A stretch of 47,527 nucleotides of DNA from Enterospora canceri (taxonomy: Eukaryota > Microsporidia > Enterocytozoonidae), in the NCBI GenBank assembly GCA_002087915.1, contig LWDP01000008.1, positions 1-47,527 on the forward strand, read 5' to 3'. Under the pieces are notes generated by a model. It was not told the origin of the DNA. It was given only the letters and a program-made list of their open reading frames with translations, and did not search any database. Made by a program: the position numbers and the translations under genes. The stretch's first letter is position 1. Each line of letters starts with the position of its first letter. Positions 22,349 through 47,527 of the stretch are shown piece by piece.

Positions 22349-24061
22349 TCATCGAACTGTTTCCGAATCCAATCGGTCGCCTACGGGTGATTTGCCACTG
22401 TTATCGAGATACGTGTCATTCTGTACAGCCCGCTTGTAGTCGGCATGGACCTTGATCATCATGAAGAAGACCAACCCAAAGAGGGCGGCCCTGATCATGA
22501 ATGTCAGAAATGCGAAGTATCTGACGTCATTCTTGTGAAAGACGTTCACCAGAACTATCACATAGATGCTTGCAAGCAGCTTCCCTATTTTCTGGGCCAA
22601 TCCATCAAAAATGCCCTTGTAAATAATTCGCTTTTCTGGGTCTATTTTCACACTGAGGCTCTCTTTTATCACGTCGTAGAACGAGTACTTGCCCACTTTG
22701 CTCAGGAGATTCGATGTCATCACCAGAAAGGCCTCCCACTCGAAGTAGGCAGTGGCTGAGTTGATGCCAAACGTAAACAGCGATCTCTCCCCAAAGTGCG
22801 TAAACGGGTAGTTGATGGTCGAAAACAGGCAGATCAGGAAGTCAGGGACTGTGCAAGCAGCACAGACGACGGCAGCAAATCCCAGAATTCCAACTGTGCC
22901 AAAGATTCGCTTGAAAACGGGTACAAGCATAAGGTAGACTGAGATTGCAGAAGTCAGGAAGCATTCGATCGACTTGTACTTGCTGCTGAGGGCGCTGCTT
23001 GAGTCGCCCTGGCCTGGATTCCTGTTCATATGCGGATTCTGCTGCAAGAAGTCAGAATAGGCCACAAACGAGTACATTGACGTGACTGAGTCAATTGCAC
23101 TAGCAAAATTGTAGGCAACGGCAAAGAGACACATTCCAAGGAGCCAGGGCGTCCGACAGACGATTCGCAGTGACTGTGACAGTCCCACATTCGTCTTTGC
23201 CTTGGGCGTCTGCTGGCCTATGACGTGGCCTACGTAAAGTGGCTTTCTAAATTCACGGTCACTGAGTCTCTTCATGAAGTAGAGGGCGCCGTAGAACAGA
23301 GAGGCCACACAGATGCTAGCACAGTAGTAGATCCACTTGGTCGATGCAATGGCACGTTGGTCTATCAAACGAGCCATAAATTTGGCAAGAAAGACTGAGA
23401 AGAAAAGAGAGGCATTTGCGCCCAGCAGAATCAGGAAGATGTAGCGGGACATCTGTTCGTGTGTCACATTGGCCGTAAAGTACATCATGTAGCCGCATCC
23501 AATCAGAAATGACGTCGACGAGTCGAGTATCACGTAGAAGAGCGTCATGACCAGGTTATTAAGCATAATCAGGGGCTGTCTGAAAATGTTGAGGCCTCTG
23601 ATTGTCCATCTGCTTCCTGACATGATCTCCTGTGCTACGCCCTTTTCTATTACAAATCTATCGAATACCGTTAGGAATCCCCATGCGAGGTAGAGCCCGA
23701 TGAAGAAGAGGATGAACATGGATGTTCCCCTGTTTACGCCGTGTTTAGCGTGGATCCGATTGACCACGCCCAGTATCGTGATTGAGGCGCAGAATGTCAG
23801 CAACTCGAGCCAAATGGCCACTGTTGCGTCCTGAAATGTGTCGAGGACCAGGATCTCCTTAAACTGCCTTATGAATGCGTAAGTCAGCCCCACCAAAAAG
23901 AAGCTCAAGTTTGCCAGGGCAACGCGCTTGTACTCGCTGGGTATGAATGGTGCTATGGAACCAATTGCGGTGTTCTTCTTGGCCTCTATTGCCTCCTTGT
24001 ACTCCTCGTAGGTCGGTAGATCAGTGGTGATTGGCTTTCCGATATCAGTAGAATGAGACAT
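22349..24061 (-). CDS. NTT: ATP/ADP (nucleotide) transporter, NTT/TLC family
   Basis: A 570-residue protein with about 12 membrane spans, of the bacterial/plastid-type nucleotide transporter family that microsporidia acquired by horizontal transfer and use to import host ATP and other nucleotides. Family signals include the first span after YKRVALANLSFFLVGLTYAF followed by RQFKEILVL, a Lys/Glu-bearing TM start, and the late IDPEKRIIYKGIFDGLAQKIGK loop. The N-terminal 40 residues are a soluble cytoplasmic lead. The start at 24061 (MSHSTDIGK) has CCCA before it; the frame continues upstream to 24223, but that would overlap the RFC gene and lose the signal. Only 58 bp separate it from the divergent RFC start. 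Confidence 0.92.
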   Translation of the reverse strand: MSHSTDIGKPITTDLPTYEEYKEAIEAKKNTAIGSIAPFIPSEYKRVALANLSFFLVGLTYAFIRQFKEILVLDTFQDATVAIWLELLTFCASITILGVVNRIHAKHGVNRGTSMFILFFIGLYLAWGFLTVFDRFVIEKGVAQEIMSGSRWTIRGLNIFRQPLIMLNNLVMTLFYVILDSSTSFLIGCGYMMYFTANVTHEQMSRYIFLILLGANASLFFSVFLAKFMARLIDQRAIASTKWIYYCASICVASLFYGALYFMKRLSDREFRKPLYVGHVIGQQTPKAKTNVGLSQSLRIVCRTPWLLGMCLFAVAYNFASAIDSVTSMYSFVAYSDFLQQNPHMNRNPGQGDSSSALSSKYKSIECFLTSAISVYLMLVPVFKRIFGTVGILGFAAVVCAACTVPDFLICLFSTINYPFTHFGERSLFTFGINSATAYFEWEAFLVMTSNLLSKVGKYSFYDVIKESLSVKIDPEKRIIYKGIFDGLAQKIGKLLASIYVIVLVNVFHKNDVRYFAFLTFMIRAALFGLVFFMMIKVHADYKRAVQNDTYLDNSGKSPVGDRLDSETVR

Positions 24062-43951: not shown

Positions 43952-44293
43952 ATGTACGAGCTATACAGGACGACAGTCGTGGGCAGAGCCATGATGGACT
44001 CGATTGACGAGAAGGTGCGGAACAACGTCCTGACACCCGAGCAGGGCATTCTGATTGCGCAGAAGTTCGATGAGATCATCCCGCGGATATTCGAGCGAGT
44101 CACAAACACGATTGGATTCAAGGGGAAGATTGTCTCGTACAACTTCGTGGACGGAGTCTGGAAGTTCCTGTGCAAAGACCTGATGCTGAACGTGAACAAC
44201 ACGTACTACAACATCCCGTATACGCGAATTGTGGCATGTGATGCCGACACGAGTGCAGACGGAGGCAGGCGAAAGAGGAGAATCGGTAAATAG
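43952..44293 (+). CDS. TOA2: TFIIA small (gamma) subunit
   Basis: A 113-residue general transcription factor subunit that stabilises TBP on promoters. The N-terminal four-helix-bundle half is clear (MYELYRTTVVGRAMMDSIDE, LTPEQGILIAQKFDEII), and the beta-barrel half follows: FKGKIVSYNFVDGVWKFLCK, then KDLMLNV and RIVACD, matching Toa2/TFIIA-gamma (Y.LYR.T.IG.AL.D.LDE, FKG.L.TYRFCD.VWTF..K, KIVACD). It ends in a short basic tail, GGRRKRRIGK. CCCCAG precedes the ATG at 43952, which lies only 26 bp after the tRNA-Asn gene. Confidence 0.93.
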   Translation: MYELYRTTVVGRAMMDSIDEKVRNNVLTPEQGILIAQKFDEIIPRIFERVTNTIGFKGKIVSYNFVDGVWKFLCKDLMLNVNNTYYNIPYTRIVACDADTSADGGRRKRRIGK

Positions 44294-44348: not shown

Positions 44349-46145
44349 ATGTTCAATTGGCAGAATAACAACCAGCAGAACCAATCGAATCAGAGTGGCC
44401 AACAGAACAGCTCATTTGGGTTTGGAAGCACGAATCAACAGAATCAGCAGAATAAGCCACTACAACTTGGATTCAGTGGTCAATTTGGGCAGAATGCATC
44501 GACAAACCAAGGCAGCCAATTTGGGCAAAATGCCCCTATGAACCAGTTTGGTCAATTTGGTGCACCATCTCAGCCAAATCAACCAAATCAGCCAAATTCA
44601 TTTGGTTTTGGCAGCAATTCGGGTGGTTTCTCCAACACCTCCTCATTTGGTTCCTCTACCTCAAATCAGCCCAATCAGTTTGGAACTGGCTTCAGCAGCA
44701 CCAACTCCTCGTTTAATCAAAATAAGCCATTTTCATCATTCAACCAAACTGGCACAACCAGCCCATTCAACAAAACGAGTAGTGGAATCTTTGGAAGCAC
44801 ACAGTCGAGTTACACGGGGACACAGCCCCAGTTTGGCACTGCCCAATCCACCTCATTCACCAAACCAACTCAATTTGGCAGTTTCAGTAGCTCATCACAG
44901 CCACAGTCTCAGCCTCAATCCCAATTCACTCAACCATTTCAGTCTACCCCTTTTGGTGCAAATAAACCAGCTCAACCTACGCAATTTGGTGCTACCTCGT
45001 CACAGCCACCCTACGCAACAACTCCATCTGCCTGGAACACGACCAACACGTGGTCAGCACCAGGAAACAGGGGCACCCAGGCAGCACCGTACAGCGAGAC
45101 ACGGGTCAAGGACGATAACAGGAATCTGAGTCTGATTGACGCAACTGGAATGGTCTGTTACAGGGAGAAGAGCAACGATGAGTTGAGGAAGGAGGACTAC
45201 GATTTAGGAAGGAAGAATGTTCCAACGAATGCGACTGCTACGACCACAACCAGTCCATTTGGAAGCAGTGGCCCAACTGGAAACCAGGCCAATTTCACCA
45301 GTCAGCCCAACCTGATGAACACAACCAGCCCATTTGGTCCACCATCACAGGGCCAACCAGCAGCAACCAACCCGTTTGGCCAACCTGGTTCAACTCAGCC
45401 CCAAAACCCGTTTGCATCAAACCCATTCACTCCCACACTAACTACCCCTACTACCAACCCATTCACCAACACACTAACTACCCCTACTACCAATCCATTT
45501 GGTAATCCACCTACTACCAACCCATTTGGTGCCACCTCACAAACCAATCCACTCAGTCACAGCAGTCTCCACCAACATGGACCACAAACCAGTGTCAATC
45601 TCAGTGATCCGTACCTGATATCCCACATCCAGTTTCCAACTCCTCTTCCTACGAAACCAGCCGTGAGAATCAGTCTCCCTGAACCGATATTCAGCAGAGC
45701 CAGGGGCGAGGAGGAGTTTGAGATTGAGATTCGTCCACCCAGAAAGTACCTGAGCAGAAGCATCTACACAATTCCAGAGGACATTGAGGATGGAAAGGTG
45801 GTGAGCAGACTGGTGATTGGGTTTGAAGGAAAAGGGAGAATCGAGTACACTGAGCCAGTCACATTCAGCAGAAGTGGACTCGATGACATCATCGTCAATG
45901 GAACTGACGTGGTGATCAACGATAAAATTGGAACAGGGTACAACAAGAGGGCACGTGTTGTGATTGAGGGTGTCTACCCGTACAGTCGCAGCAGTGGCAG
46001 TCACATTCGTGGGAAGCAGGAGACGTGGCCAAACAGGGGGCTGCAAGAGAGATTCATTTACGGGCTGAAGAGTGACATCAACAAGAAGTACGTTGACTAC
46101 GACTGTGAGAATGGGGTCTACGTCTACGAAGTAGAGCACTTTTGA
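44349..46145 (+). CDS. NUP98: Nup98-type FG nucleoporin ending at the autoproteolysis site
   Basis: A 598-residue nucleoporin. The first 255 residues are Gln/Asn/Ser-rich with many FG, GFG and PFG repeats that bind transport receptors. A GLEBS-like, Rae1/Gle2-binding segment follows near 258-290 (LSLIDATGMVCYREKSNDEL, RKEDYDLGRKN). A second repetitive FG region contains the 36-bp repeat. The Nup98 autoproteolytic domain lies at about 420-598, and the protein stops at EVEHF: exactly the HF residues after which Nup98 and Nup145 cut themselves (HF|S). So the gene encodes the mature N-terminal product and no Nup96. CCCATC precedes the ATG at 44349. Confidence 0.9.
   Translation: MFNWQNNNQQNQSNQSGQQNSSFGFGSTNQQNQQNKPLQLGFSGQFGQNASTNQGSQFGQNAPMNQFGQFGAPSQPNQPNQPNSFGFGSNSGGFSNTSSFGSSTSNQPNQFGTGFSSTNSSFNQNKPFSSFNQTGTTSPFNKTSSGIFGSTQSSYTGTQPQFGTAQSTSFTKPTQFGSFSSSSQPQSQPQSQFTQPFQSTPFGANKPAQPTQFGATSSQPPYATTPSAWNTTNTWSAPGNRGTQAAPYSETRVKDDNRNLSLIDATGMVCYREKSNDELRKEDYDLGRKNVPTNATATTTTSPFGSSGPTGNQANFTSQPNLMNTTSPFGPPSQGQPAATNPFGQPGSTQPQNPFASNPFTPTLTTPTTNPFTNTLTTPTTNPFGNPPTTNPFGATSQTNPLSHSSLHQHGPQTSVNLSDPYLISHIQFPTPLPTKPAVRISLPEPIFSRARGEEEFEIEIRPPRKYLSRSIYTIPEDIEDGKVVSRLVIGFEGKGRIEYTEPVTFSRSGLDDIIVNGTDVVINDKIGTGYNKRARVVIEGVYPYSRSSGSHIRGKQETWPNRGLQERFIYGLKSDINKKYVDYDCENGVYVYEVEHF
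45435..45532. repeat. 36-bp tandem repeat in the NUP98 FG region
   Basis: A unit starting ACACTAACTACCCCTACTAC at 45435 recurs at 45471, with a partial third copy after 45503. It encodes TLTTPTTNPF-type FG spacer repeats. The period of 36 keeps the frame. Confidence 0.75.
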
Positions 46146-46170: not shown

Positions 46171-47527
46171 CTAGCTATCACCAGTCCAATCTATCATATT
46201 CCACCTGTTTCTCCTGATGACGTCCTTGTAGTTGATCTTGGCCATGTTCTTCAACTCACCATCGTGCTTCCTCGTGATGTTTCCAATCTTCTCCTTCTTG
46301 TTTCTCTTGAATCGCCTGCTTCTCTTTGTCTCGTCCATGAACACGAATGTCTCCCTGTATTTGGTGCTGATTGTGGTGGTCTCAGTCGTCTGGTTGCCTG
46401 AATCGAGTCTGATGCACGGTGTAGGCAGAACCAGTGCTGATACAATTGCAGTCAGTGGAGTCCAATACCACGTATGGGCCATTAGTTGGAATGCTGCCAC
46501 CCTGAATGGATCAGTCTGCCCATTCATGTTTCTGATGCTCAGAATGGCCGATCTCCCTCCCAATTCCATCAGTGATCTCCCCAGTGATGCGCCAATCTTC
46601 ACGCACTTTGAGTCGACTCTGTTTGCGATGGTTGAGTTGAGCCACTTTGCTATTCGTACGAAGTTGGGCGTGCTGCTCTTGTTGGTGTAGTCGACCTCGT
46701 TGTACTGCTGTAGGGCTATTCCAATTCCAATTGCTGCCTGCTGTTTGACCAGGTCTTCTGTGTCGAAGAGAAGGGCTTCAAGGAGGCCGATCACGGTGGC
46801 AGCCTCGGATTCATCGACTGTCTCGGTGCTGAAGAAGCCCAGGCAGATGGCTGCTGCTGCCCTGACATGCATTGAGTGGGAGGTAGCAAGTGGAATCATG
46901 ATCTGTCTGATCAATATTGTGTTGTAGCCTATCACCAGTCCAAGGGCAATGACTGCGTGTCTACGAGTGTCATCTGATCCACTGTTGACGTGCTGGAGTA
47001 TCTGATCAATAACTGATAAGTTGCCTGTATTAGCATATGATGCACCCAGCCTATGAAGTAGTTCATCCAAATGTAGGTTGTTACTGTTATTACTGTTGTT
47101 ACTATTACAGTTGTTAACCTTACTGTCGTTCTTACTATTACAGTTGTTAACCTTACTATCGTCATTAGTTATTATTGTATTACCCTTGTTATTCTTATTA
47201 CCCTTACTACCACCCTTACTATTGTTATCACCCTTACTACTATTGTTACTTCCCATTCCTGTTATCATCCCCAGTGCCAAATTCACTACTCGTATCACCC
47301 TCTTGAAATCAGTTGATCTCCTGATCTCCCTAAGGTACTCTACGACAGTCATGTCATTGGTGCCAGCGTAGACCAGTCCAATCGAGTAGCAGGCTGTCTC
47401 CTGCGCCAGGGTGCTGTACTTCTCAAAGAGGAGACGTGTCCTCTGAAACAGGTCGTAGTCTCCTGTTCCAAACTTGAGAATTCCTAGGGCGAGATACGCC
47501 CCAAACAGAACACACTCGTCAGATGGG
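46171..47527 (-). CDS. RPN2: 26S proteasome regulatory subunit Rpn2 (partial, 3' end only)
   Basis: The frame is open to the window edge, so the N-terminal part of this normally about 950-residue scaffold of the 19S particle is missing. Visible are PC repeats of the toroid (ECVLFGAYLALGILKFGTGD, YSIGLVYAGTN, HAVIALGLVIG, HVRAAAAICLGFFS, KQQAAIGIGIALQQYNEVDY) and the C-terminal part. An Asn/Ser/Lys/Gly insertion of about 65 residues (encoded around 47080-47280) interrupts the repeats. The ending (KINYKDVIRRNRWNMIDW) is short. Identity as Rpn2 rather than Rpn1 rests on the repeat wording and the downstream LALVLPTPCIRL-type strand; it is fairly secure. Confidence 0.85.
   Translation of the reverse strand, partial: PSDECVLFGAYLALGILKFGTGDYDLFQRTRLLFEKYSTLAQETACYSIGLVYAGTNDMTVVEYLREIRRSTDFKRVIRVVNLALGMITGMGSNNSSKGDNNSKGGSKGNKNNKGNTIITNDDSKVNNCNSKNDSKVNNCNSNNSNNSNNLHLDELLHRLGASYANTGNLSVIDQILQHVNSGSDDTRRHAVIALGLVIGYNTILIRQIMIPLATSHSMHVRAAAAICLGFFSTETVDESEAATVIGLLEALLFDTEDLVKQQAAIGIGIALQQYNEVDYTNKSSTPNFVRIAKWLNSTIANRVDSKCVKIGASLGRSLMELGGRSAILSIRNMNGQTDPFRVAAFQLMAHTWYWTPLTAIVSALVLPTPCIRLDSGNQTTETTTISTKYRETFVFMDETKRSRRFKRNKKEKIGNITRKHDGELKNMAKINYKDVIRRNRWNMIDWTGDS
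47099..47157. repeat. 26-bp direct repeat inside the Rpn2 insertion
   Basis: A 26-bp sequence starting TTACTATTACAGTTGTTAAC occurs at 47099-47124 and again, identical, at 47132-47157 (period 33 bp, so 11 codons). On the minus strand it encodes SKVNNCNS twice. It lies within a longer TTACTA/ACCCTT low-complexity tract. Confidence 0.85.

What the first reader, a model, noticed from the sequence alone, without database searches (positions are those of the whole stretch)
44349..46145. Nup98 that ends exactly at the autoproteolytic HF site
In Nup98 and yeast Nup145 an autoproteolytic domain cuts after His-Phe to free the C-terminal Nup96 half. Here the domain is intact in layout, but the reading frame stops directly after HF. 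The catalytic Ser and everything beyond are absent, so the gene makes a pre-cut form and needs no self-cleavage. It shows a fused precursor reduced to its mature half, and raises the question of where Nup96 is encoded.
Basis: partly seen in the sequence, partly recalled or inferred. Interest (0 to 1): 0.8.

Follow-up and report, generated by a model that had tools for sequence, protein, structure and literature searches.

The report
Pre-cut Nup98 in microsporidia
In these tiny fungus-like parasites the gene for a nuclear-pore protein, which in yeast and humans is made as half of a larger protein that cuts itself in two, stops exactly at the cut, so the protein is made already trimmed; its former partner half has not been found.

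Summary
ORF 44349-46145 encodes a 598-aa Nup98 with FG repeats, a Gle2-binding segment and an S59 autoproteolytic domain, ending ...VEHF-TGA. By sequence and by fold, F598 lies on the residue just before the canonical cut (human F880|S881), so the nucleophile and Nup96 are missing. No frameshift: the next gene, Rpn2, is convergent, 25 bp away. Nor is it unique. Of 34 microsporidian S59 proteins (11 named species, 7 genera, plus unnamed assemblies), 33 end exactly at HF; one ends YFE. F is kept in 34 of 34, whereas yeast Nup116, also free of Nup96, has lost it. The genome has one S59 domain, unlike plants, where Nup96 keeps its own. Nup96 was not detected, but neither were Nup84, Nup85 or Nup88, while Nic96- and Nup155-type scaffolds were; divergence and loss cannot be told apart. 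Best reading: an old separation at the scissile bond that left a non-cleaving domain kept for docking. Separate Nup98 and Nup96 genes are known in plants; the exact, conserved pre-cut end was in none of ten literature searches. Caveat: length limits of my protein searches could hide fused homologues above 1,225 aa.

The parts
44349..46145 (+). Nup98 gene, 598 aa plus TGA stop
   Evidence: Open frame; start agrees with the MYNW start of its close relatives P0002 and P0003.
44349..45065 (+). first FG-repeat region (residues 1-239)
   Evidence: 20 FG dipeptides in the whole protein, 15 of them before residue 240; low pLDDT.
45066..45209 (+). GLEBS, Gle2/Rae1-binding segment (residues about 240-287)
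   Evidence: PF21240 matches 26 of 34 family members at E <= 0.01; in the window protein it is weak, E 0.09, below cut-off. The family profile matches the GLEBS peptide of 3mmy_B at E 1e-6. Predicted as two strands and two helices, with middling pLDDT of about 50-66.
45210..45599 (+). second FG/PF region (residues 288-417)
   Evidence: 5 further FG dipeptides, the last at residue 393; low pLDDT.
45603..45641 (+). conserved SDPYL..I.F segment before the APD (residues 419-431); possible scaffold-binding linear motif
   Evidence: D420 and P421 invariant, L423 and F429 nearly so, in 34 sequences; the function is inference.
45747..46142 (+). S59 / autoproteolytic domain (APD), residues 467-598, in the product state
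46137..46142 (+). His597-Phe598, the P2-P1 residues of the ancestral cut, here the C-terminus
   Evidence: Aligned to human H879-F880; F in 34 of 34, H in 33 of 34 homologues.
46143..46145 (+). TGA stop at the place of the catalytic Ser/Thr codon
   Evidence: Direct reading.
46171..47526 (-). neighbour: Rpn2 (26S proteasome), convergent, runs off the window end; leaves no room for Nup96
   Evidence: phmmer to yeast Rpn2 4ady_A, E 1.3e-24.

Best explanation
The gene is a true Nup98 whose reading frame was separated from Nup96 exactly at the autoproteolytic bond, early in the history of the microsporidia sampled here. The protein is synthesised in the form that other fungi and animals reach only after self-cleavage. 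The S59 domain cannot cleave, because the nucleophile at the position after F is not encoded, but it keeps its fold and its HF end. It most likely serves as the anchor that holds the FG barrier to the pore scaffold, through the surface that in other organisms binds the Nup96 N-terminus or the Nup88/Nup82 propeller. The terminal Phe stays under strong selection, probably because it fills the groove beside the old active site and so shapes the docking surface. Shown here: domain architecture, exact end, conservation, single S59 copy. Inferred: loss of activity, docking role, reason for HF retention, direction of change from fusion to separation.
For: Architecture: S59 at the C-terminus, GLEBS, 20 FG dipeptides. 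Exact position of the end by sequence and by fold; the last 8 residues have mean pLDDT 94. Conservation: 33 of 34 proteins end HF on a tree with about 12 changes per site in summed branch length (my addition of the lengths printed). Control: yeast Nup116, a stand-alone relative, reads H-AAEQT at the same place, so an S59 domain freed from Nup96 need not keep the F. One S59 domain only in the 2.24-Mb genome. Catalytic dyad H879/S881 (PMC1560137, passages). The APD anchors Nup98 to Nup96 or Nup88 (PMC11148069, passages).
Against: P0033 (unnamed assembly, contig of 2.6 kb) ends YFE: neither the His nor the exact end is absolute there. All three protein searches excluded long proteins (over 1046, 915 and 1225 aa), so fused homologues in unsampled microsporidia could be missed. 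No Nup96 or Nup88 partner was detected in this genome, so the docking partner is not shown. Yeast Nup116 keeps this fold without the F, which weakens a purely structural reason for keeping it. Among chains of the S59 domain alone the closest by sequence is the stand-alone Nup116, not a cleaved Nup98.
Confidence: 0.82

Rival explanations
1. Duplicate-and-loss: the gene descends from a stand-alone Nup98 copy, comparable to yeast Nup116 or Nup100, and the fused copy was lost, so nothing was ever split at the bond.
For: Among PDB chains of the S59 domain alone the best matches are yeast Nup116, for the single protein and for the family profile (62 bits against 54 for Nup98 and 34 for Nup145; full-length Nup98 chains score higher there, 83-91 bits, with their best stretch in the FG/GLEBS part). 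The 2005 survey PMC1257468 marks, as I read its flattened table, a microsporidian homologue in the Nup36/Nup100p row and none in the Nup98 row.
Against: Nup116 lost the F and runs on for 5 residues after the His, whereas 33 of 34 microsporidian proteins stop exactly at HF. Only one S59 domain remains, so no second copy supports it. Match rank reflects rate as much as descent.
Confidence: 0.13
2. Nup96 was lost altogether, with much of the outer ring, and the Nup98 frame shrank to its own mature half.
For: No match at E <= 10 for PF12110, PF04121, PF07575, PF12931, PF10168 or a human Nup96 piece, while PF04097 (E 2.5e-8) and PF03177 (E 2e-6) were found.
Against: The searches had no positive control in a microsporidian, and even the Nic96 match is below its Pfam cut-off. 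PMC3486916 (passages) names Nup84, Nup188 and Nup192 as without microsporidian homologues, which fits either loss or divergence. This differs from the best explanation only in the fate of Nup96, so the two are not exclusive.
Confidence: 0.3
3. Plant-type split: Nup98 stands alone and a separate Nup96 gene carries its own S59 domain and still self-cleaves.
For: This is the arrangement in Arabidopsis and rice: three S59 genes each, one of them MOS3/Nup96 or its orthologue (PMC1560137, passages; PMC2674657, table footnote).
Against: Only one S59 domain in the genome, by Pfam and with the window's own domain as query.
Confidence: 0.03
4. Assembly frameshift or premature stop in one genome.
For: None found.
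Against: Convergent Rpn2 gene 25 bp downstream and the same end in 33 of 34 homologues.
Confidence: 0.01

Closest known systems
Nup98 half of the Nup98-Nup96 precursor (human, Xenopus) and Nup145N of yeast and Chaetomium
   Same: FG repeats, GLEBS (in Nup98), C-terminal S59/APD ending at ...HF; same fold.
   Different: There HF is followed by Ser or Thr and Nup96, and the end is made by self-cleavage; here a stop codon follows HF.
Yeast Nup116 (and, from memory, Nup100)
   Same: Stand-alone protein with an S59-fold C-terminal domain and no Nup96; best sequence match among S59-domain chains.
   Different: Nup116 has Ala in place of Phe and five residues after the His; the microsporidian proteins keep HF and 33 of 34 end there.
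Plant Nup98a/b with separate Nup96 (MOS3/SAR3)
   Same: Nup98 and Nup96 in separate genes in most plants (PMC8685260, passages).
   Different: The plant Nup96 gene retains an S59 domain (PMC1560137, PMC2674657); here only one S59 domain was found. I did not see the exact C-terminus of plant Nup98.
Tetrahymena Nup98 paralogues and TtNup96
   Same: Four Nup98 paralogues, only one of them described as sharing a transcription unit with Nup96 (PMC5450191, passages).
   Different: TtNup96 is expressed in one transcription unit with MicNup98B, so the link is not fully broken there; here another gene follows at once.
Trypanosome TbNup158
   Same: Autoproteolysis lost (PMC4758718, passages).
   Different: Opposite outcome: the two halves stay fused for good.

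Membership tests
Nup98 (FG nucleoporin) | FG repeats in the N-terminal part | tested here: met
   20 FG dipeptides, last at residue 393.
Nup98 (FG nucleoporin) | GLEBS motif for Gle2/Rae1 | tested here: met
   26 of 34 members by PF21240 at E <= 0.01; family profile matches 3mmy_B GLEBS. The window protein alone is below cut-off (E 0.09), and no Rae1 orthologue was identified in the genome.
Nup98 (FG nucleoporin) | C-terminal S59/APD fold | tested here: met
Nup98 (FG nucleoporin) | anchoring at the pore through the APD (Nup96 or Nup88) | not testable with these tools
   Partners not detected; no binding data.
S59 autopeptidase (active) | His at P2 and Phe at P1 | tested here: met
   H597-F598 aligned to H879-F880.
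S59 autopeptidase (active) | Ser/Thr nucleophile directly after Phe | tested here: not met
   TGA follows; in 33 of 34 homologues nothing follows F, and P0033 has Glu.
Nup98-Nup96 precursor | Nup96 in the same frame | tested here: not met
   Stop after HF and convergent Rpn2.
Nup100/Nup116-type stand-alone paralogue | Phe of the cut site lost, short tail after His (read from the Nup116 structures only; Nup100 not seen) | tested here: not met
Plant-type split (S59 kept on Nup96) | second S59 domain in the genome | tested here: not met
   One match only; the genome may be incomplete.

The most novel reading that the evidence does not exclude
Microsporidia froze a self-cutting domain in its product state: the terminal Phe with its free carboxylate, once only a by-product of cleavage, is now a selected docking element, in a nuclear pore that has lost or rebuilt the Nup96-centred outer ring.
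Probability: 0.15. Interest if true: 0.75.

Novelty: new variant of a known kind. Interest (0 to 1): 0.48.

Why it matters
Why Nup98 and Nup96 are made as one self-cutting protein is unclear. A group of organisms in which the cut is written into the gene, yet the two cut-site residues stay conserved, lets cleavage be separated from what the cut end does. Other lineages show other outcomes (permanent fusion in trypanosomes, S59 on both genes in plants), so the states can be compared. It also poses a concrete question about very small nuclear pores: whether microsporidia still have an outer ring with Nup96.

Tried and rejected
Searching for Nup96 in the window's genome with PF12110, the helical families PF04121, PF07575 and PF12931 and a human Nup96 piece gave nothing; since no positive control exists here, absence is not shown. 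Nup88 (PF10168): nothing. Rae1, partner of GLEBS: human RAE1 as query gave five matches in four other WD40 genes (frames read); judged by eye and from memory one looks like Cdc20, one like Pfs2 and one like RbAp48, none like Rae1, so no Rae1 orthologue was identified. The Nic96 candidate found no solved structure by sequence.

Considered and rejected: frameshift or assembly error; a plant-type second S59 gene; an alternative start at 44241 (in frame, but it overlaps the TFIIA-gamma gene, and the close relatives start at the place of 44349).

Bias to tell: the three protein searches accept only proteins of 0.55-1.75 times the query length (329-1046, 288-915 and 385-1225 aa), so fused precursors longer than 1225 aa could not appear. 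No Nosema, Nematocida, Trachipleistophora, Mitosporidium or metchnikovellid protein was recovered by name. A word check showed that the first 20 microsporidian S59 domains share at most one searched word with human Nup98 or yeast Nup116, so the search tool could hardly have reached fungal or animal fusions. The pdb_via list covers only chains that Foldseek ranked.

Literature searches that listed no report of this C-terminus or of Nup98/Nup96 separation in microsporidia: (open-access PMC library only; listings read, and passages of the papers named in the report). [quoted passage not shown] it is not held. Against it, PMC1560137 and PMC8421043 (passages) say that cleavage is needed for localisation at the pore.

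Full report
What is in the sequence. The frame 44349-46145 on the + strand is open and encodes 598 residues. It begins MFNWQNNN, carries 20 FG dipeptides and a segment (residues about 240-287) that resembles the Gle2-binding GLEBS motif, and ends in an S59 domain, PF04096, E 5e-11 over residues 481-598. GLEBS is weak in this protein alone (E 0.09, below cut-off), but 26 of 34 family members match PF21240 at E <= 0.01 and the family profile matches the GLEBS peptide of the Rae1-Nup98 crystal 3mmy. The protein ends VYEVEHF, coded CAC TTT TGA at 46137-46145.

Is it an artefact? No. After the TGA there are 25 bases and then the end of a convergent gene, Rpn2 (E 1.3e-24 to yeast Rpn2). The three + frames downstream were read; they are broken by stops or run antisense to Rpn2. 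Three protein searches gave 33 relatives; with the window protein that makes 34, and all 34 were counted. Of these, 33 end exactly with HF. The exception, P0033, from an unnamed assembly, ends YEVSYFE. F is invariant in 34 of 34 and H in 33 of 34. Named species are Encephalitozoon cuniculi, E. romaleae, E. hellem, E. intestinalis, Vittaforma corneae, Hamiltosporidium tvaerminnensis, Astathelohania contejeani, Pancytospora philotis, P. epiphaga, Glugoides intestinalis and Enteropsectra breve. S59-region identity among the first 20 is 40-97%, median 48%. In a tree of all 34 the HF end is in every large branch; the printed branch lengths add up to about 12 changes per site (my sum). The window's genome is microsporidian: its SSU rRNA matches RF02542 over the full model at 1211 bits (that model also rings in 9 of 14 prokaryote controls, so the evidence is the high score and full length, together with the named homologues).

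Why the conserved HF is notable. A freed S59 domain need not keep it. Yeast Nup116, which has no Nup96 attached, reads NH-AAEQT at this place; Candida glabrata Nup116 also shows Ala after the His, though that is near the end of the crystallised construct. In microsporidia the Phe has not changed once in the sample. Cleavage cannot be the reason, since there is nothing to cleave. The likely reason is that the Phe helps shape the docking groove. In vertebrates the APD anchors Nup98 to the Nup96 N-terminus or to Nup88, and blocking it stops pore assembly early (PMC11148069, passages). That this holds in microsporidia is inference.

Where is Nup96? Not found. In the 2.24-Mb genome (75 contigs) PF12110, PF04121, PF07575, PF12931, PF10168 and a human Nup96 piece gave no match at E <= 10. 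Nic96 (PF04097, E 2.5e-8, below its cut-off) and a Nup155/133-type protein (PF03177, E 2e-6, just above its cut-off) were found; rescored as proteins both fall slightly below their cut-offs. So these scaffolds are only just detectable and the outer ring may be beyond reach; divergence and loss cannot be told apart. One S59 domain was found, which argues against the plant arrangement, in which MOS3/Nup96 retains its own (PMC1560137, PMC2674657). Published surveys: Bapteste 2005, as I read its flattened table, marks no microsporidian Nup98 or Nup96 but does mark one in the row Nup36/Nup100p (PMC1257468, passages), which may be this protein. Neumann 2010 treats Nup96-98 as one row and reports seven Nups for E. 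cuniculi (PMC2951903, passages); the flattened table does not let me read the E. cuniculi cell. The Trachipleistophora genome paper names Nup84, Nup188 and Nup192 as without microsporidian homologues (PMC3486916, passages).

How it may have arisen (inference). In a fused ancestor everything after the Phe is removed anyway, so a stop exactly at the nucleophile's position leaves mature Nup98 unchanged once Nup96 is made, or dispensed with, by another route. Some Ser codons lie one substitution from a stop, so a single step is possible in principle. Duplication followed by loss of the fused copy is the main rival and is not excluded; in its favour, among S59-domain chains the best sequence match is the stand-alone Nup116.

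Limits. The searches could not return proteins above 1225 aa, so fused genes in other microsporidia would have been missed; several major groups were not recovered by name; the protein end is predicted, not measured; the partners are unknown. Novelty: separate Nup98 and Nup96 genes are known in most plants (PMC8685260, passages); in Tetrahymena only one of four Nup98 paralogues is described as sharing a transcription unit with Nup96 (PMC5450191, passages); loss of cleavage is known in trypanosomes (PMC4758718, passages). None of the ten literature searches listed a report of the exact, conserved pre-cut end in microsporidia. I class it as a new variant of a known kind.

Noticed in passing
P0033 (homologue, unnamed assembly): The only one of 34 microsporidian Nup98s that does not end HF: it ends SYFE, with His replaced and one residue added. 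Either a real relaxation of the rule or a sequencing error on a 2.6-kb contig.
   Followed up: partly
N-termini of many homologues, e.g. P0016, P0020, P0021, P0025, P0026: A conserved N-terminal motif of the type FFQxTPxK is present in many microsporidian Nup98s but absent from the start of the window's own branch (MFNW/MYNW). Function unknown.
   Followed up: no
45603-45641: The SDPYL..I.F segment just before the APD is strongly conserved (D420, P421 invariant in 34); perhaps a scaffold-binding linear motif.
   Followed up: no
window genome G000: No clear Rae1 orthologue was found with human RAE1 although a GLEBS-like segment is kept; only other WD40 proteins matched.
   Followed up: partly
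46171-47526 (-): Rpn2 gene with a low-complexity Asn/Ser/Lys-rich insert at about residues 93-150 of the part in the window.
   Followed up: no
43952-44293 (+): TFIIA gamma subunit gene immediately upstream; an in-frame ATG for Nup98 at 44241 lies inside its 3' end, but the start at 44349 fits the relatives.
   Followed up: partly
22349-24061 (-): Polytopic membrane protein of 570 aa that looks, from memory, like a microsporidian nucleotide (ADP/ATP) transporter; not searched.
   Followed up: no
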